Shown here piece by piece: positions 952-10,907 of a stretch of DNA of 64,000 nucleotides; the stretch's first letter is position 1, and each line of letters begins with the position of its first letter. The position numbers and the translations under genes are program-made. The notes under the pieces are model-generated. The model made no database searches, was not told where the DNA came from, and saw nothing but the letters and a program-made list of their open reading frames with translations. The stretch is from Deltaproteobacteria bacterium (lineage in GTDB: Bacteria; Myxococcota; Myxococcia; SLRQ01): contig JARGFU010000021.1 in the NCBI GenBank assembly GCA_029210625.1, positions 1-64,000 on the forward strand. The letters run 5' to 3'.

Positions 952-1950
952 CTAGCGAGCCACGACGACCTGGTTGCGCCCTCCCTCCTTGGCCTCGTAG
1001 AGCGCCTTATCGGCGCGGCGGATGAGGGCCGCGGCGTCGTCGCCCGCCCCCGAGGCCTGGGCCACGCCCGCGCTCACCGTCAGGCGCAGCGCCCCCCGCT
1101 CCGTCTCGATGGGGGTCTCCGCGACCCGCTGCCGGATCCGATCCGCGACCCGCCAGCCGCCCTCCCGGTCGGTGTTGGGGAGGAGGAGGATGAACTCCTC
1201 TCCGCCGTAGCGCACGACCACGTCGATCTCCCGGACGAGGTCGCTGGTGATCCGCACGACGGCGCGCAGCACCTCGTCCCCCACGGGGTGCCCGTGGGTG
1301 TCGTTGACCTGCTTGAAGTGGTCGATGTCGAGCATGATCAGCGAGAGGGGCTGATCGTAGCGCAGCGCCCGATCCATCTCGGCGGGGAAGCGCTCGGAGA
1401 GGTACTGGCGATTGTAGGCGAGGGTCAGGGCGTCGGTGACGGCGAGCCGGTAGAGGCGCGCATTCTCCAGGTCGCGCACCACCGAGGAGGCGAGGAACTC
1501 CATCATCGACTCGTGCTCGGCCGTGAAGGCCTCCGCGTCCTGGCTGGAGGCGGTGATGACACCGATGACCCTCCCCGCCGCCTCGAGGGGCACGCAGACC
1601 ATGCCCCGCTGGGCCCGGCCGAGGCCGAGATCCTTGAAGCGCGGATCGACCGGGGCGTCCCCCACCCGCGCCGACTCCCCCTTCTCGGCCACCCAGCCGG
1701 CGATGCCCTCGCCGCGCCGGAAGCCGATCTTCTGGACCTCGTCGTCGGTGAAGCCGTGGGCGGCCCGACAGAGGAGCGCCTCGCCGGACTGATCGAAGAG
1801 CAGCACCGAGGCGGTCTCGACCTGCGCGACCTTCGCGGCAGCCTCCGCGATGTCCTCGAGCGCGGACTCGAGGGACTCACCCTGGTTCAGCCGCCGGGAG
1901 ACCTCGTAGAGGATCCGGAAGACCTCGCGCCGTGAGGAGCGATCAGTCGT
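952..1950 (-). CDS. GAF domain diguanylate cyclase (GGDEF)
   Basis: Makes cyclic di-GMP from two GTP. An N-terminal GAF sensor domain (about residues 20-165) leads into a GGDEF domain (about 172-330). The active-site signature reads GGEEF, preceded by YNRQYL and DIDHFKQVND; the inhibitory I-site RxxD (REID) sits exactly five residues before GGEEF, so product inhibition is expected. The start is a problem: the first ATG, GTG or TTG is a GTG at 1806, but the frame upstream to 1950 encodes a convincing GAF N-terminus (RILYEVSRRLNQGESLESAL). The only start-like position with a good ribosome site is an ACG at 1950, six bases after AGGAGG, overlapping the end of hpt by 8 bases. I therefore extend to 1950; the conservative alternative is 952-1806. 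No membrane segment, so cytosolic. Confidence 0.88.
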   Translation of the reverse strand, partial: TTDRSSRREVFRILYEVSRRLNQGESLESALEDIAEAAAKVAQVETASVLLFDQSGEALLCRAAHGFTDDEVQKIGFRRGEGIAGWVAEKGESARVGDAPVDPRFKDLGLGRAQRGMVCVPLEAAGRVIGVITASSQDAEAFTAEHESMMEFLASSVVRDLENARLYRLAVTDALTLAYNRQYLSERFPAEMDRALRYDQPLSLIMLDIDHFKQVNDTHGHPVGDEVLRAVVRITSDLVREIDVVVRYGGEEFILLLPNTDREGGWRVADRIRQRVAETPIETERGALRLTVSAGVAQASGAGDDAAALIRRADKALYEAKEGGRNQVVVAR

Positions 1951-2494
1951 GGCGAGCCTCCTTCTTCAGGACCCCGATGAAGGGGAGGTTGCGATAGCGC
2001 TCGGCGAAGTCCAGCCCGTACCCGACCACGAAGGCGTCGGGGATGGTGAAGCCGAGGAAGTCGATCTCGATCTTGTGGATCGCGCGGGAGGGCTTCTCGA
2101 GGAGGCTGCAGACCTTCAGGCTGGTGGGGTGCCGCGACTTCAGGTTGTCCAGCAGGTACTCCATCGTCAGCCCGGTATCGACGATGTCCTCGACCACCAG
2201 CACGTGGCGACCCTCGATGGGCTTGGAGAGGTCCTGGGTGATCCGCACCACGCCGGAGGACTTCGTCGAGTCGCCGTAGGAGGAGACGCCGATGAAGTCG
2301 ATCGCCAGCGGGAGATCGATGTGGCGGGCGATGTCCGCCGCGAAGACGAACGAGCCCTTCAAGATCACGATCAGGGTGAGGGGTTGGCCCTGGTAGGTCT
2401 CGGTGATCTCCTTGCCCAGCTCCGCGAGGCGCTCCCGGATCTGCTCCTCGGTGATCATGGACTCGACGTCCTGGCTCAGTCGCTCGAGGGTCAT
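1943..2494 (-). CDS. hpt: Hypoxanthine phosphoribosyltransferase
   Basis: Converts hypoxanthine (and often guanine) plus PRPP to IMP/GMP in purine salvage. At 183 residues it has the family's usual size. The PRPP-binding loop VLVVEDIVDTGLTM is intact, as is the flexible-loop region GVSSYGDSTKSSG and the C-terminal DFLGFTIPDAFVVGYGLDF base-binding segment. The ATG at 2494 has AGAAGGAG as ribosome site. It is the third gene of a tdk-upp-hpt salvage operon, 17 bases after upp, and its 3' end overlaps the diguanylate cyclase frame. Confidence 0.96.
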   Translation of the reverse strand: MTLERLSQDVESMITEEQIRERLAELGKEITETYQGQPLTLIVILKGSFVFAADIARHIDLPLAIDFIGVSSYGDSTKSSGVVRITQDLSKPIEGRHVLVVEDIVDTGLTMEYLLDNLKSRHPTSLKVCSLLEKPSRAIHKIEIDFLGFTIPDAFVVGYGLDFAERYRNLPFIGVLKKEARHD

Positions 2495-2511
2495 GGCTGC
2501 TCCTTCTCTCT

Positions 2512-3309
2512 TCAGAACTCTGCGTTGTTCATCAGCTCGCCGAAGCCACCGCCGCCCGGCACGATGTACTGGCGATCGTCGAGGCCCCGCTCCTCGTCCC
2601 AGCGCTCGCCGGGCCGGCAGGCCAGCACGTCCTCCGGCGAGAGCCCGCGGTCGAGGCGCAGGGCGTAGATCGGCACCTCCGGGTGGAGGCCGGTGATCTT
2701 CTTCAGGTACTCCGGCGTGACGATGAGGTGCAGGGCGACCAGCCCTCTGGGCGTGCCCTCGACCTCGTTCTGGTAGATGTCGATCGCCCGCGCCATCGAG
2801 CCGCCGGTGGCGGCCATGGGATCCGGGAAAAGCACCATCGCCCCCTCGACCCCGCCGCCGATCTTCGAGCCGTGGACGCTGGTGCCGGTCACCTGCCCCT
2901 TCTCGTCGGTGACGCGGTTCATCACCACGTGGTCCTGCCGGATCAGCTCCGGGTCGATCACGGTGTGCAGCACGTCGAAGGCGACCTGCGAGGGAAGGGT
3001 CCCGGCTCGGGCGACGTTCACGGTGATCGTGCGGGTGCGCCGGTCGATGATCTCGTGGCGCAGCACCGCCCGCGGCTCCGAGGCCGCCATCCGGGTGGGC
3101 CAGTCGATCCGGGTGCGGGGGAACTCCTTCACCAGCGCCGCGCGCACCAGGCCCTCGTAGCAGGCGGAGATCAGCCGGTTCATCTCGGGCTGCACCGTCT
3201 CGGGCACGCAGGCCCGGGCCAGGAGGGAGCGCAGGTAGGGGTCGGCCAGGATGTGCACCTGGCTTCCGTAGGCGTGATCTTCCTCGGCGAGGATGCAGGG
3301 CGGGTTCAA
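2512..3309 (-). CDS. upp: Uracil phosphoribosyltransferase family protein, with insertions
   Basis: Probably makes UMP from uracil and PRPP. The PRPP-binding motif appears as LFPDPMAATGGSM and the uracil-binding C-terminal motif as DDRQYIVPGGG, both at the expected positions. At 265 residues it is clearly longer than the roughly 210 residues of ordinary Upp: it has an extended N-terminal half and an insert of about 18 residues just before the YIVPG motif (around PEDVLACRPGERW). The start is a TTG at 3309 that shares four bases with the tdk stop (TTGA) and has AAGGAGG six bases upstream. The family call is firm; substrate specificity of this long variant is inferred. Confidence 0.85.
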   Translation of the reverse strand: MNPPCILAEEDHAYGSQVHILADPYLRSLLARACVPETVQPEMNRLISACYEGLVRAALVKEFPRTRIDWPTRMAASEPRAVLRHEIIDRRTRTITVNVARAGTLPSQVAFDVLHTVIDPELIRQDHVVMNRVTDEKGQVTGTSVHGSKIGGGVEGAMVLFPDPMAATGGSMARAIDIYQNEVEGTPRGLVALHLIVTPEYLKKITGLHPEVPIYALRLDRGLSPEDVLACRPGERWDEERGLDDRQYIVPGGGGFGELMNNAEF

Positions 3310-3926
3310 GAGTCCTCCTTCAGGCCCAGGGTACCCTGGGCGTCGTCGTGGCGTGGGGTCGCGGTGGCCCCGGCGGGGTCGAAGCAGGCCCGGCAGCGGG
3401 CCTCGTAGGCATCGGAGGCGCCGACCACCACCCGGTGCTTGTCGGCCACCAGGCGCTGGGAGCGGCCGGCCGGCTTGCCGCAGACCACGCAGATGGCGAG
3501 CTGCTTGGTGACGTACTCGGCCACCGCCAGGATGGCGGGCATCGGGTCGAAGGGCACGCCCCGGTAGTCCTGGTCGAGGCCGGCGACGATCACCCGGATG
3601 CCCCGGCCGGCGATCTGCTCGCAGACCTCGAGGAGCTCGGGCCCGAAGAACTGGGCCTCGTCGATGGCCACCACCTGCACGCCCTCCTCGAGCTTGCTCA
3701 GGATGGCCTCGGCGTCCTCGACGGGGGTCGACTCGATGGAGAGCTGGTTGTGGGAGACCACCTTCCGCTCGTGGTAGCGGACGTCGATGGCCGGCTTGAA
3801 GATCTGGAGCTTCAGTCGAGCGATCTGCGCGCGGGTGACCCGCCGGATGAGCTCCTCGGTCTTCCCCGAGAACATCGGTCCACAGATCACCTCGATCCAG
3901 CCCGTGTCGCCTCGCTCGGGGTGCAT
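3306..3926 (-). CDS. tdk: Thymidine kinase
   Basis: Phosphorylates thymidine to dTMP with ATP. The P-loop GPMFSGKTEELIRR opens the protein, the Walker-B-like segment VVAIDEAQFFG and the lasso segment VAGLDQDYRGVPFDPM follow, and zinc-ribbon cysteines are seen at CVVCGKP and CRACF. The 206-residue length fits type II (TK1-like) enzymes. It is the first gene of the salvage operon; a promoter with a perfect TTGACA box lies immediately upstream, leaving almost no leader. Stop and upp start overlap by four bases. Confidence 0.96.
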   Translation of the reverse strand: MHPERGDTGWIEVICGPMFSGKTEELIRRVTRAQIARLKLQIFKPAIDVRYHERKVVSHNQLSIESTPVEDAEAILSKLEEGVQVVAIDEAQFFGPELLEVCEQIAGRGIRVIVAGLDQDYRGVPFDPMPAILAVAEYVTKQLAICVVCGKPAGRSQRLVADKHRVVVGASDAYEARCRACFDPAGATATPRHDDAQGTLGLKEDS

Positions 3927-4015: not shown

Positions 4016-5221
4016 TCAGCGGAAACGCAGGTAGGAGGCCAATAGCTCCCGAACGAGGGCGGTCAGGGAGAGGCCGTGCTTCTCTGCCATCTCCTTGAGG
4101 ATCTCGTAGTCCGAGGTCTTCAGGCGCAGCGGCACGACCATGGTCGATCCGCTGGTGGCCTCCCGCTCGCCGTCCGGATCCACCTCCAGTCCGTCGGCGT
4201 CGGGGACCTCGCTGGCGTCCTCGTCCTCGTCCGCCTCCTCCACCGGCAGGGGCGCCCCCTCGGTGAGCAGCCGGCGCCGCTCGGCCTCCAGCTCGTCGGA
4301 GAAGAGCTGCTTGAGGAAGTTCGCCAGGTGGATGTTCGAGGGGGTGAACTCGTACTCGGCGAGGAACTGGTCGATGTCGTACTGCATCTCCCAGGCGGTC
4401 TGGTAGCGCTTCTCCCGGTCCTTCTCGAGGGCCTTCATCAGGATGCGCTCGACCCCCTCGGGGACGTCGGCCTTGAAGTAGCTCGGCGCGTAGATCTTCC
4501 CCTCGGAGATCGACTTGAGGATCGCCACCTCGTTGTCGCCGGTGAAGAGCTTCAGATCGGTGATCCACTCGTAGAGGACCACGCCGAGGGAGAAGATGTC
4601 CGAGCGGGCGTCGAGGGACTTCCCCACCACCTGCTCGGGCGACATGTAGGAGAGCTTGCCCTTGATCTCGCCGGCCCGGGTCTGCTCGACCTGGGTGGCC
4701 GCCTTGGCGATGCCGAAGTCGAGGATCTTCACCGTGCCATCGAAGGAGACGAAGATGTTCTCGGGCGTCACGTCGCGGTGGACGATGTTCAGGGGGTTCC
4801 CGTAGACGTCGGTCTTCTGGTGCGCGTAGTAGAGCCCCTCGCAGACGCTCGAGGCGATCTTCAGCGCGTAGACCATCGGGAAGGGGATCCCCATGGAGTC
4901 GGCCTTCGGGATCACGCGCCGCATGTCGCGCCCGAAGATGTACTCCATGGCGATGAAGAAGGTGTCGCCGATCTTGCCGAGGTCGTAGATCTGCGCGATC
5001 GACGGATGCGAGAGCTGCGCGGCCAGCTTCGCCTCGTGCAGGAACATGTTCACGAAGCTCTGCTGCTTCGAGAGGTGCGGCCGGATCCTCTTGATGACGA
5101 TCGTCTTCTCGAAGCCCTCGAGGCCGGCCTGCCGGGCGAGAAAGATCTCGGCCATGCCGCCGACCGCGATCCGGTCGATCAGCGTGTACTTTCCGTACCT
5201 TACGCCCTTCTTACGCGCCAC
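4016..5221 (-). CDS. Ser/Thr protein kinase with a C-terminal ribbon-helix-helix-like domain
   Basis: A Hanks-type kinase of 401 residues. The kinase domain (about 9-290) has the glycine loop, the ATP-binding Lys in VIKRI (about 44), HRDVTPEN catalytic loop (about 148), DFG (about 168) and SPEQ. An acidic linker with runs of Glu and Asp (about 315-350) joins it to a 43-residue tail (PLRLKTSDYEILKEMAEKHG, then LSLTALVRELL) with the strand-helix-helix pattern of CopG/Arc-type DNA-binding proteins. There is no membrane segment, unlike most kinases of this type. I place the start at the GTG at 5221; an in-frame TTG at 5260 would add 13 residues of no obvious value. The kinase call is firm; DNA binding by the tail is inferred from pattern only. 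It follows a degenerate receiver gene on the same strand. Confidence 0.92.
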   Translation of the reverse strand: MARKKGVRYGKYTLIDRIAVGGMAEIFLARQAGLEGFEKTIVIKRIRPHLSKQQSFVNMFLHEAKLAAQLSHPSIAQIYDLGKIGDTFFIAMEYIFGRDMRRVIPKADSMGIPFPMVYALKIASSVCEGLYYAHQKTDVYGNPLNIVHRDVTPENIFVSFDGTVKILDFGIAKAATQVEQTRAGEIKGKLSYMSPEQVVGKSLDARSDIFSLGVVLYEWITDLKLFTGDNEVAILKSISEGKIYAPSYFKADVPEGVERILMKALEKDREKRYQTAWEMQYDIDQFLAEYEFTPSNIHLANFLKQLFSDELEAERRRLLTEGAPLPVEEADEDEDASEVPDADGLEVDPDGEREATSGSTMVVPLRLKTSDYEILKEMAEKHGLSLTALVRELLASYLRFR

Positions 5222-5312: not shown

Positions 5313-5753
5313 TCAGAAGTGCATGCGGTGTTCGACCAGCGGACCGCGCGCCAGGGCGGCCTCCCGCAGGAGGGCGCCGAGGTCGCCGGCCTTGAGCGGA
5401 TGCTCGAGCGCGGTGACGGGATGCATGGCCAGGGTCGCCCGCAGCAGGGGCGTCAGCTCGTCACAGACCACTGCGACGGTCGGCGCGTGCTTCCAGCTGC
5501 GGATCATCCTCGAGAGGTCCTCGTGGATCGCCCGGCCATCTGCCCCGCTCGAGAGCAGGACGAGATCGATCTCCGGCTCGTTGTCGAGGGCCTCCCGGGC
5601 CTCTTCTGCATCCCGCACCCAGCGCGTCTCCACCCACTCGTCGAGGCGGCGCAGTGCCATCTTTATCAGTACCAGGTACACCTTCCGGTGTTCCACGACC
5701 ATCACGCGACGTCGAACGATCAACTTCGTATCCCCCGAAAGCGATCGGTTCAT
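5313..5753 (-). CDS. Degenerate response-regulator receiver-like protein
   Basis: About 146 residues with the alternating strand/helix layout of a receiver domain: RRVMVVEHRKVYLVLIKMAL, then EIDLVLLSS, PTVAVVCDE and a final EHPLKAGDL that resembles the conserved Lys-Pro region. The usual acidic pair at the end of strand 1 is reduced to VEH and the phospho-accepting Asp at the end of strand 3 is replaced by Ser, so phosphorylation is not expected. It may be a pseudo-receiver used for protein binding. The ATG at 5753 is chosen; an ATG at about 5705 (MVVEH) is possible. It lies between a PEGA protein gene and the kinase-RHH gene on the same strand. Confidence 0.7.
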   Translation of the reverse strand: MNRSLSGDTKLIVRRRVMVVEHRKVYLVLIKMALRRLDEWVETRWVRDAEEAREALDNEPEIDLVLLSSGADGRAIHEDLSRMIRSWKHAPTVAVVCDELTPLLRATLAMHPVTALEHPLKAGDLGALLREAALARGPLVEHRMHF

Positions 5754-5842
5754 TCGATTCAACAGACGCCCCGAGGGTAGCAAGGCGGTCGGGGCCCCGA
5801 ACAGCGGGGCCGGATCCCCAGGGGAGGATCCCCGCGTGCAAA

Positions 5843-5884: not shown

Positions 5885-6805
5885 TCAGAAGCGCAGGGCC
5901 GAGAGCGCATCGTAGGTCTCCCGGTCGCGGGTCTGGTTGTAGAGGTCGCGCTGCTCCTTGAAGTCGGCCGCGGTCGCGTCCGCCTTGAGGTGGAAGTACC
6001 CGCCGGCCCCGAGGGCGACCACCGTCGCGCCCGCCGAGATCCAGGCGCCGAGCCGCATCCGCTTCGCCGACTTGGCGTAGGACTCGAGGAAGTCGGGCGA
6101 GGGCACCATCTGCACGCCACGGGCGACGGTCTCGTCCACCTTCACGACCACCTGCTCCTTGGCGGTGATGAAGCCGGTCTTCTCCACCTCGACGAGGTGC
6201 ACGCCGGCCGGGACCTTCTGCTCGCCCAGGGGGCTGACCCCGACGATCCGGCCGTCGATCTTCACCGACGAGCCGGGCTCGCTCACCGAGATGATCAGGG
6301 AGCCCAGGCGCCCCTCGAGGGCCTTGGAGAGGAGCTGCACCGTGGCGTTCGGGACCTCGTCGATGAGGCCGCCCGCGTCGCCCTTGACCGTGCGGCTGAC
6401 GCGGTTGAGCACCTTGGCCTTGGCGACCTCCATCAGGACGAGATCGAGGATGGTCTGCTCGCCGACCTTCTTGAGGCCGCCCTGGATCATGTAGTCGGCG
6501 CCCAGCGCGCCGCCGATCTCGGCCAGGCAGCTCTCCGAGTCGACGCCGCAGAGCTGCTTCTGGGCCTCGAGGGAGAGGAGCGCCCGGATGTCGGCGCCGC
6601 TGATGACCGAGAAGGCCTCGGTGTCCCTCGCGGCGCGCGCGACCGAGGCGCTGACCACGCTCACGAGATCCTCGGAGACGCCGCCGCCCTTGAGATCCAT
6701 CACCGCGAGCTGCGGCAGCTCCTCGGCGGAGGCCGGCCGCACCGGCGTCACCAGACCGACCAGCGCGAGGCCGGCCACGACGAGACGTCCCATCCTGATC
6801 TGCAT
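5885..6805 (-). CDS. Secreted PEGA-domain protein with a TolB/CsgG-like N-terminal domain
   Basis: A signal peptide (residues 1-27, ending ASAEE) leads to a domain of about 130 residues (LPQLAVMDLKG, then a VISGADIRALL helix and an ALGADYMIQGGL strand) with the layout of the periplasmic TolB N-terminal or CsgG fold. A PEGA domain follows at about 167-235, with the typical GSSVKIDGRIVGVSPL segment. A hydrophobic segment at about 250-270 (LGAWISAGATVVALGAGGYF) could anchor it in the membrane. The ATG at 6805 has GGGGGAGG as ribosome site, and a TAGGAT box lies about 45 bases upstream. Proteins of this layout are common in Myxococcota next to kinases; the precise role is unknown. Confidence 0.85.
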   Translation of the reverse strand: MQIRMGRLVVAGLALVGLVTPVRPASAEELPQLAVMDLKGGGVSEDLVSVVSASVARAARDTEAFSVISGADIRALLSLEAQKQLCGVDSESCLAEIGGALGADYMIQGGLKKVGEQTILDLVLMEVAKAKVLNRVSRTVKGDAGGLIDEVPNATVQLLSKALEGRLGSLIISVSEPGSSVKIDGRIVGVSPLGEQKVPAGVHLVEVEKTGFITAKEQVVVKVDETVARGVQMVPSPDFLESYAKSAKRMRLGAWISAGATVVALGAGGYFHLKADATAADFKEQRDLYNQTRDRETYDALSALRF

Positions 6806-9128: not shown

Positions 9129-10778
9129 TCAACGGAGCTTGGAGGCCCAGTCCCGGGCTTCCTGCTGGAGCCGGGGGTCGGCGTCACGCGCGCCGCTGTC
9201 GGCGTAGCGCTGGTAGTAGGTCGCGGCGCGGCGGTTCTTGCCGAGGGCGCGGTGCGCCTCGCCCAGCCCGAAGAGGGGGGAGGCCATCTGCTGGTCCAGG
9301 GCCAGGGCCCGCTCGTACTCCGCGACGGCCCGGTCGTAGCGACGCAGCCCCACCAGGGCCGAGCCGAGGGCCACGTGGGCCACGGCGAGGGAGGGATCCG
9401 CCGAGATGCTCTGCTCCAGGGCCTGCACGGCTCCCTCGTACTGCCGCTGCCCGATGAGGGCCACGCCCCGCTCGTACTCCTGGCGCGAGCGGCGGACGTC
9501 CACCGCCGTGGGCTGCCGGGCGGGCGCGGGCGCGGGCTGCGTCGCCGGCTGGGGCTGCGGCTGGGGCGTCGGCGTCCCGGCGTAGGGCTGATGGGTGGGG
9601 GCCGGCGCCGGTGCCGGTGCCGGTGCCGGCGCGGGAGCCGGCGCGGGCTGCGAAGCGGCGAGCTTCTTGCGGGCGACCTCGATGTTCTTCCGGGCCCCCT
9701 CGTTGGTCGGATCGAGCTCGATCACGTGCTCCCAGGCGGGGATGGCGCGGTCGAGGCGCCCCTGCAGCGCGAAGGCGTACCCGAGCTTGTAGTGCGCCTC
9801 GCTGGCGCGAGGGTTCTGCTGCACCCCGTTCTGGTAGGCCTTCACGGCGCCCTCGTAGTCCTTGGCCTTCATCCGGGCGTCGCCCAGCTCGACCTGCTTG
9901 CGCGCGGCCCGCGCCTCGGCGTTCCCGGCGGGTTGGGCCGGCTGCACCGCGGGCTGCACCGGCGGCGGCTGCGGCTGCGCCACGGGCGGCGGCTGCGGCT
10001 GAGGATAAGGCTGCGGCGTGGGCTGCGGCTGAGGATAAGGCTGCGGCGTGGGCTGCGGCTGAGGATAAGGCTGCGGCGCGGGCTGCGGCTGAGGATGAGG
10101 CTGGGGCGCGGGCTGCGGCTGCGCGACCGGCTGCGCGACCGGCTGCGGCTGGGGCTGGGGCTGGGGCGTGGGCTGCGCCACGGGCGCCGGCGGCGGCGGC
10201 GGCGGACGCGCGGCCTCCTCGAGCTCTTTCTTCAGGGTCGCGGCCTTCTCCTGGGCCTTGATGACCCACTTGCGCTCGCTGGCCCGGGTCTCCTTCTTCA
10301 CGTACTGCTCGTAGGCGGCGATGGCCTCCTTCTTGCGGTCGGCCTGGCGGAAGGACTCGGCCAGGCCGTAGTAGGCGTCCGGCTCGTCGGGCTTGAGCTG
10401 GGTGTGCTTGGTGTAGCCCTCGATGGCCTGGTCCCACTTCTCCGCCTTGCGGGAGGCGTAGGCCCAGTTGAACCAGGCGGTCGCGTACTCCTCGTCCGCC
10501 ATCGCGGCGGCGTGGAAGGCCTCGATGGCCTCGTCCTTCTTGCCCTGCTTGTAGAGCAGGGTCCCCATCTCGTTGTGGGCCAGGGCGTAGTCCGGCGCGA
10601 TCTCGACCGCCTTCTGGTAGGCCGCCAGGGCGGCGTCGGCGTTGCCGGCCTTGGCCAGCTGATCCGCCTCGCGCTTCTTCTCCTTGGCCTCGTCCGGGAT
10701 ACCGGCAAAGGCGGGGAACGTGAGGCCCAGCCCGAGGACGAGGGCGACGGCAGTGATCAGTCGGCGATTTTCGTACAT
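9129..10778 (-). CDS. Secreted TPR protein with Pro/Gln-rich linkers
   Basis: A 549-residue exported protein. The signal peptide is MYENRRLITAVALVLGLGLT and the cleavage site is probably after PAFA. Three blocks of TPR repeats (about 25-185, 300-375 and 430-549; for example ALAAYQKAVEIAPDYALAHN) are separated by a Pro/Gln/Tyr-rich linker and by a Pro/Ala-rich linker (about 385-410). The ATG at 10778 is chosen over a frame extension because AGAAGGAAG precedes it. TPR blocks suggest a protein-binding scaffold in the periplasm; the partner is unknown. It is transcribed alone, with hairpins behind it. Confidence 0.85.
   Translation of the reverse strand: MYENRRLITAVALVLGLGLTFPAFAGIPDEAKEKKREADQLAKAGNADAALAAYQKAVEIAPDYALAHNEMGTLLYKQGKKDEAIEAFHAAAMADEEYATAWFNWAYASRKAEKWDQAIEGYTKHTQLKPDEPDAYYGLAESFRQADRKKEAIAAYEQYVKKETRASERKWVIKAQEKAATLKKELEEAARPPPPPPAPVAQPTPQPQPQPQPVAQPVAQPQPAPQPHPQPQPAPQPYPQPQPTPQPYPQPQPTPQPYPQPQPPPVAQPQPPPVQPAVQPAQPAGNAEARAARKQVELGDARMKAKDYEGAVKAYQNGVQQNPRASEAHYKLGYAFALQGRLDRAIPAWEHVIELDPTNEGARKNIEVARKKLAASQPAPAPAPAPAPAPAPAPTHQPYAGTPTPQPQPQPATQPAPAPARQPTAVDVRRSRQEYERGVALIGQRQYEGAVQALEQSISADPSLAVAHVALGSALVGLRRYDRAVAEYERALALDQQMASPLFGLGEAHRALGKNRRAATYYQRYADSGARDADPRLQQEARDWASKLR
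9991..10110. repeat. Four tandem 30-base repeats inside the TPR gene
   Basis: Units at 9991-10020, 10021-10050, 10051-10080 and 10081-10110. The first two are identical, the third differs at one base and the fourth at a few. They encode a 10-residue Pro/Gln/Tyr unit (QPYPQPQPTP), so copy number can change without breaking the frame. Confidence 0.9.
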
Positions 10779-10907
10779 GGGACGGCTTCCTTCTCGATCC
10801 GGATGAGGCGCCACTTCAACCCTTCATGCTAGCTCGCCTCCGGCCACGCGAAAAGGATCCGGCTTGTCCTTCCCTGCCGCGTGGCCGATGCTCGCGCGAC
10901 GCCCTTG

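What the first reader, a model, noticed from the sequence alone, without database searches (positions are those of the whole stretch)
4016..5221. Ser/Thr kinase fused to a ribbon-helix-helix-like tail
The sequence shows a complete kinase domain, an acidic linker and a 43-residue C-terminal end with the strand-helix-helix pattern of CopG/Arc proteins. RHH proteins bind DNA as dimers. A soluble kinase that dimerises and binds DNA by its tail would link signalling directly to promoters, or the tail may only be a dimer tag. I do not know a described kinase of this build.
Basis: partly seen in the sequence, partly recalled or inferred. Interest (0 to 1): 0.58.

Follow-up and report, generated by a model that had tools for sequence, protein, structure and literature searches.

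The report
Soluble kinase with ribbon-helix-helix tail
This is a bacterial protein kinase that ends in a small fold normally used by DNA-binding proteins to pair up; the same kinase is present across much of the phylum Myxococcota, and its tail looks better suited to pairing two kinase molecules than to gripping DNA.

Summary
On the minus strand, 4016-5221 encodes a 401-residue Hanks-type kinase, a disordered linker and a C-terminal ribbon-helix-helix (RHH) fold (pLDDT 91.5; nearest structures PutA, CopG, Arc, NikA). It is no one-off: 111 of 147 genomes held of the class and 28 of 48 from other classes of the phylum carry an orthologue. The tail is present in 126 of 128 orthologues read, and the family is one clade (100/99).

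The strand residues that face DNA in other RHH proteins are mostly not DNA-like: Lys/Arg at any of three positions in 14 of 126 tails (24 of 25 control RHH domains), Pro in 60; the window's own member is one of the 14. The hydrophobic core is kept. I favour a built-in homodimeriser that pairs two soluble kinase domains for trans-autophosphorylation (about 0.6); DNA binding stays possible (about 0.2). In several distant lineages the gene is tightly coupled to nucleoside-salvage genes; in the window it precedes tdk, an upp-like gene and hpt. No paper found describes a kinase of this build. Dimerisation, DNA binding and kinase activity were not tested.

The parts
4016..5221 (-). Hanks-type Ser/Thr kinase with C-terminal RHH fold, 401 aa, GTG start at 5221
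4397..5179 (-). kinase domain, residues 15-275; invariant K44, E63, H148-R149-D150, D168-F169-G170
   Evidence: Pfam Pkinase E 8.9e-36; invariant in 44 of 44 rows of alignment A4
4145..4237 (-). disordered linker, residues 329-359
   Evidence: AlphaFold2 pLDDT under 50; linker pN/pS 0.56 over 43 pairs
4019..4141 (-). RHH tail, residues 361-401: strand about 362-367, helix A about 369-381, helix B about 386-400
3306..3926 (-). thymidine kinase gene, next downstream
   Evidence: Pfam TK 3.9e-54; NCBIfam thymidine kinase 263 bits over cut-off 183
2512..3288 (-). uracil phosphoribosyltransferase-like gene
   Evidence: NCBIfam upp E 6.4e-14 but below its cut-off, 52.1 of 208 bits; a homologue also follows the kinase in L168, L171, L174
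1943..2494 (-). hypoxanthine phosphoribosyltransferase gene
   Evidence: TIGR01203 219.9 bits over cut-off 150

Best explanation
A soluble Hanks-type Ser/Thr kinase family of Myxococcota in which the usual membrane segment and outer sensor are replaced by a flexible linker and an RHH fold. Shown: the fold prediction, its conservation and the single clade. From established knowledge of the fold: an RHH unit is stable only as an intertwined dimer, so the tail should pair two kinase chains. Inferred: the pair brings two catalytic domains close enough for trans-autophosphorylation, so activity would be set by concentration, by a partner or by phosphorylation rather than by an outside ligand. DNA recognition by the tail is judged unlikely in most members. 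A role tied to nucleoside salvage is a lead from gene neighbourhood only.
For: RHH fold; profile hits to CopG (E 1.2e-3) and MazE7. Conserved tail: 126 of 128 orthologues read and HMM cross-test with negative control. The core 363/365/367/375/379 is hydrophobic in 97-100% by weight. Selection is stronger on core positions (pN/pS 0.29) than on the DNA-facing trio (0.50) and linker (0.56). DNA-facing trio: 14 of 126 with Lys/Arg, 60 with Pro, 32 with an acid; controls 24, 0 and 2 of 25. No clear membrane segment: the highest 19-residue hydropathy mean after residue 290 is 1.58 over the 128 read. In 24 of 24 genomes searched with the tail profile the kinase's own tail is the best hit, so no dedicated second partner was seen. 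Dimerisation as activator of bacterial kinases such as PknB: PMC6213207, passages.
Against: No dimer was modelled or measured. The linker is often long (about 20 to 100 residues by eye), so the tail need not set the geometry of the catalytic domains. The window's own member has Arg366 in the strand trio. At genus level the DNA-facing residues can be constant (g35: Ala364 and Pro366 in 27 of 27), so variability alone does not exclude a role. Basic residues are common elsewhere in the tail: 381 (88% basic), 391 (65%) and 399 (97%) by weight, and mean net charge is +1.2. Tail pN/pS is 0.43 against 0.09 for the kinase domain: the tail evolves fast. L147 has a kinase without the tail.
Confidence: 0.6

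Rival explanations
1. The tail binds DNA as a classical RHH dimer and places the kinase on promoters or the nucleoid, or makes the kinase DNA-activated.
For: Best structural match is the DNA-binding RHH of PutA (Z 7.4), itself an RHH fused to an enzyme. Arg366 in the window's own strand; Lys/Arg at 361 in 82 of 126 and at 388 in 53 of 126 tails. Precedent for a DNA-activated Hanks kinase: B. subtilis YabT, by a basic juxtamembrane region (PMC6333020 abstract and passages).
Against: The strand trio lacks Lys/Arg in 112 of 126, holds Pro in 60 and only non-polar residues in 34; in the orthologues outside the class helix-B start positions 387 and 388 are Glu/Asp in 15 and 14 of 28.
Confidence: 0.2
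2. The tail docks a partner protein or a small ligand; the near-invariant C-terminal Lys-Tyr-Arg end and exposed helix B form the docking face.
For: Lys/Arg399 about 97% and aromatic 400 about 94% by weight; the chain ends one residue after position 400 in 115 of 126, and 72 of 126 end in KYR. CdbA of M. xanthus shows an RHH that binds DNA or c-di-GMP, each excluding the other (PMC7156744, abstract and passages).
Against: No partner found; the CdbA ligand residues on the strand (Lys, Ser) are not matched by the usual trio here. Positions 397-400 may simply be dimer core.
Confidence: 0.15
3. The tail is a remnant of an antitoxin-like gene fused by chance, without present function.
For: Tail identity to the window's is only 15-46% and one member (L147) lacks it.
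Against: Kept in 126 of 128 orthologues from many families, with conserved core and a fixed C-terminal end.
Confidence: 0.05

Closest known systems
Hanks-type (eukaryotic-like) Ser/Thr kinases of bacteria, PknB/PASTA group
   Same: Kinase domain with the full catalytic motifs; NCBIfam PknB_PASTA profile 273 bits over residues 10-324
   Different: Below that family's cut-off of 450 bits; no membrane segment or PASTA repeats seen; RHH tail instead
Myxococcal kinases with long C-terminal extensions (many with a hydrophobic segment and PEGA-like repeats, by eye)
   Same: Closest relatives of the kinase domain outside the family, mostly 38-54% identical
   Different: They lack the tail (33 tested) and form the other side of a branch with 100/99 support
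B. subtilis YabT
   Same: A Hanks kinase with a C-terminal region that acts in activation and dimerisation (PMC6333020, passages)
   Different: YabT is membrane-anchored and uses a basic disordered DNA-binding region, not an RHH fold
PutA RHH domain; CopG, Arc, NikR; CdbA of M. xanthus
   Same: Fold
   Different: Those bind DNA; here the strand residues are not DNA-like in most members

Membership tests
Hanks-type Ser/Thr kinase | Pkinase domain above Pfam cut-off | tested here: met
   124.1 bits over 31.7
Hanks-type Ser/Thr kinase | catalytic Lys, Glu, HRD and DFG | tested here: met
   invariant in 44 of 44
Hanks-type Ser/Thr kinase | phosphotransfer to Ser/Thr | not testable with these tools
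   needs an enzyme assay
RHH superfamily | strand-helix-helix fold | tested here: met
RHH superfamily | profile above Pfam RHH_1 cut-off | tested here: inconclusive
   window tail alone 23.0-23.7 bits, over 20.5; whole protein 17.6, under it; RHH_1 at E<=0.1 in 20 of 44 tails
RHH superfamily | intertwined dimer | not testable with these tools
   single-chain prediction only
DNA-binding RHH regulator | basic or polar residues on the DNA face of the strand | tested here: inconclusive
   not met by most of the family (Lys/Arg in 14 of 126); the window member has Val, Pro, Arg at 362, 364, 366
DNA-binding RHH regulator | binds a specific operator | not testable with these tools
   needs EMSA or ChIP-seq
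PASTA kinase (NF033483) | score over curated cut-off, PASTA repeats | tested here: not met
   273 of 450 bits, match ends at residue 324

The most novel reading that the evidence does not exclude
A widespread, single-copy kinase of Myxococcota whose RHH tail is both dimeriser and sensor: it reads a nucleotide, nucleic acid or partner and sets kinase activity, tying nucleoside salvage (with which the gene is coupled in distant lineages) to Ser/Thr phosphorylation. This would be an RHH fold repurposed from transcription control to kinase control.
Probability: 0.2. Interest if true: 0.75.

Novelty: new variant of a known kind. Interest (0 to 1): 0.5.

Why it matters
Myxobacteria hold very many Hanks kinases, and few have a known input (general knowledge). 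This one is old, single-copy by the E-value gap, apparently soluble, and found in M. xanthus AM003, so it can be tested in a model organism. A tail that forces dimers would make a simple case in which oligomerisation alone could set kinase activity; how dimerisation leads to autophosphorylation is called unknown in PMC6213207 (passage). The gene's repeated coupling to nucleoside-salvage genes gives a concrete first guess about the pathway.

Tried and rejected
Promoter-bound kinase as the main reading: lowered by the strand residues. A dedicated second protein with the same tail: none stood out in 24 genomes; the weaker hits there were not read. Plasmid-borne copies: no match. Identity with the M. 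xanthus kinase Pkn14 (called cytoplasmic in a passage of PMC6213207): could not be settled; no paper seen gave its sequence or neighbours. Presence outside Myxococcota: in the one genome-contig scan the seven loci matched through to the tail were all records titled Myxococcales, Myxococcota or Deltaproteobacteria; that scan uses short peptide patterns and is not exhaustive.

Entropy as a test of DNA binding: at matched divergence it does not discriminate. NikR controls (18 sequences, mean 0.50 bits) and g35 tails (27, mean 0.58) both have near-constant strand positions; the chemistry differs (Arg-Gly-Ser against Met/Thr-Ala-Pro), so I rest the argument on chemistry. The 25 controls are the 25 of 30 fetched best-scoring RHH_1 loci that I gave to the script; 18 are NikR-like by eye, so they are few independent families and lean to classical DNA binders. 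Rows dropped before tail counts: L147 (no tail) and L187 (frame ends at a stop after 263 residues). Eleven of 139 orthologues were not fetched; ten of these align to residue 400 or 401, one (G126) is a contig-edge fragment. The pN/pS figures are plain Nei-Gojobori proportions without correction for saturation, on 43 pairs chosen greedily by identity, not on a tree. The tree has long branches among the non-family rows. The neighbour clusters (53 and 41 of 97 loci) were replaced by the homology counts. A first script for the RHH controls used a faulty pattern and found nothing; one search replaced it.

Full report
What is there. The finding's interval is a minus-strand gene of 401 codons, from GTG at 5221 to the stop at 4016-4018. 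Pfam places the kinase domain at residues 15-275. Lys44, Glu63, His-Arg-Asp 148-150 and Asp-Phe-Gly 168-170 are invariant in 44 of 44 aligned family members, so the enzyme is probably active; activity itself was not tested. After residue 320 comes a stretch that AlphaFold2 leaves disordered (329-359), acidic in this member.

The tail. RHH_1 scores 23.0 bits on the last 57 codons alone, above the cut-off of 20.5, but 17.6 in the whole protein. A profile of 44 tails matches CopG and the mycobacterial antitoxin MazE7 at E 1.2e-3 among PDB sequences; its nominal top row, a designed repeat protein, and several peptide-synthetase chains are short or repeat-driven matches. AlphaFold2 of the tail gives pLDDT 91.5 with the two helices in the RHH places. 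Foldseek E-values are weak (0.06 and up, for 46 residues), but the 50 rows are RHH proteins by their titles. VIA-align gives Z 7.4 at 0.8 A over 43 residues to PutA; Z under 8 alone can be a common arrangement, and here the consistent identity of the rows carries the weight.

Distribution. A search of 147 genomes of the class gave 118 with a match at E<=1e-90, of which 111 have a best match at 3.5e-110 or better and seven only at 1e-98 to 1e-90. The second-best kinases start at 1.3e-106. The phylum search of 195 genomes (the same 147 and 48 others) gave 138 with one match each at E<=1e-115, 28 of them among the 48 outside the class. Family f3 of the class showed none in its listed rows. I read 128 of these 139 orthologues: 126 end in the tail, L147 lacks it, L187 is cut short. 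HMMs trained on one side find the other: 95 of 100 and 28 of 28 at E<=0.01; the five misses are L147, L187 and three tails at E 0.014-0.048. Kinases without the tail (33) gave nothing better than E 0.22. On the kinase domain the 46 family rows given to the tree are one side of a branch against 28 others, 100/99 support. M. xanthus AM003, reached through L026, has the orthologue at 63% identity.

DNA binding or pairing. In RHH proteins the strand residues insert into the major groove and the helix-helix loop touches the backbone (PMC7156744, passages). By alignment with the hydrophobic positions 363/365/367, the outward strand positions are 362/364/366. Weighted over 126 tails, their basic share is 2, 11 and 20%, and Pro makes 24% of 366. 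Unweighted, 14 of 126 have any Lys/Arg in the trio, 60 have Pro, 32 an acid, 34 only non-polar residues; the window's own trio is Val-Pro-Arg. Of 25 control RHH domains from the same class, 24 have Lys/Arg, none has Pro and two have an acid. At genus level the trio can be constant but with non-polar side chains: g35 keeps Ala364 and Pro366 in 27 of 27. pN/pS over 43 pairs is 0.09 for the kinase domain, 0.56 for the linker, 0.43 for the tail, 0.29 for its core and 0.50 for the trio. So the fold is kept and the DNA face is not. Against this, basic residues are frequent at 361, 381, 391 and 399. I therefore keep DNA binding at 0.2. Because an RHH unit needs two chains to make its core (established knowledge of the fold), pairing is the plainest use. 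The step from pairing to activation is inferred from PknB and YabT (PMC6213207 and PMC6333020, passages).

Neighbourhood. In the window the kinase is followed on the same strand by tdk, an upp-like gene, hpt and a gene that looks like a GAF-GGDEF protein by eye (the last not scanned). Markers were counted over 119 flanked loci. Outside the class, 10 of 28 have a same-strand amidohydrolase just upstream (the two that were scanned, L159 and L168, score above the cut-off of 5'-deoxyadenosine deaminase), 4 of 28 an opposite-strand one, 8 of 28 a cytidine-deaminase-like gene upstream (named by eye from L159, not scanned) and 3 of 28 upp-like and hpt downstream; 16 of 28 have at least one of these. 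In the ten same-strand cases the amidohydrolase stops 8-144 bases before the kinase match. In f7, 49 of 74 have an amidohydrolase and an rRNA methyltransferase-like gene upstream and 66 of 74 truA downstream. Other families have other neighbours: f9 shows none of the salvage markers in 5 of 5, and the window's closest relative G001 has none, though its contig reaches only about 650 bases past the kinase. No chance expectation was computed. I take this as a lead on pathway, not as proof.

Literature. Searches for RHH together with Hanks-type kinases (none), CopG with kinase domain architecture in Myxococcus (none), RHH with fused kinase (four papers, listing seen) and RHH with M. xanthus and kinase (11 papers, listing seen) showed no title or abstract start that describes this build. 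PMC2877116 has no mention of ribbon or CopG (find only). The library holds open-licence papers only, and the PNAS paper I tried by DOI (recalled as the myxobacterial kinome paper) is not held, so coverage of print is incomplete. RHH folds, Hanks kinases and DNA-activated kinases are each known; the combination and its reach are what appear new.

Noticed in passing
L159-L165, L168, L171, L174 and window 1943-3926: Recurrent coupling of this kinase gene with nucleoside-salvage genes (deoxyadenosine deaminase, cytidine deaminase, upp-like, hpt, tdk) in distant lineages.
   Followed up: partly
L147 (G094): Orthologue that ends soon after the kinase domain, without tail, on a long branch: a natural tail loss.
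   Followed up: no
window 5313-5783, minus strand: Gene just upstream of the kinase with no Pfam or NCBIfam match at E<=0.001; looks like a receiver-type domain by eye.
   Followed up: no
window 5885-6805, minus strand: Protein with a PEGA domain (E 2.3e-10), two genes upstream of the kinase.
   Followed up: no
L039: A record titled Comamonas sp. KCTC 72670 carries a typical myxococcal kinase; the record may be mislabelled.
   Followed up: no
genomes G038 and G086: Unusually many RHH_1 matches (23 and 20) compared with most of the class.
   Followed up: no
window 9129-10814, minus strand: TPR-like protein (by eye) with long proline-glutamine repeats between repeat blocks.
   Followed up: no
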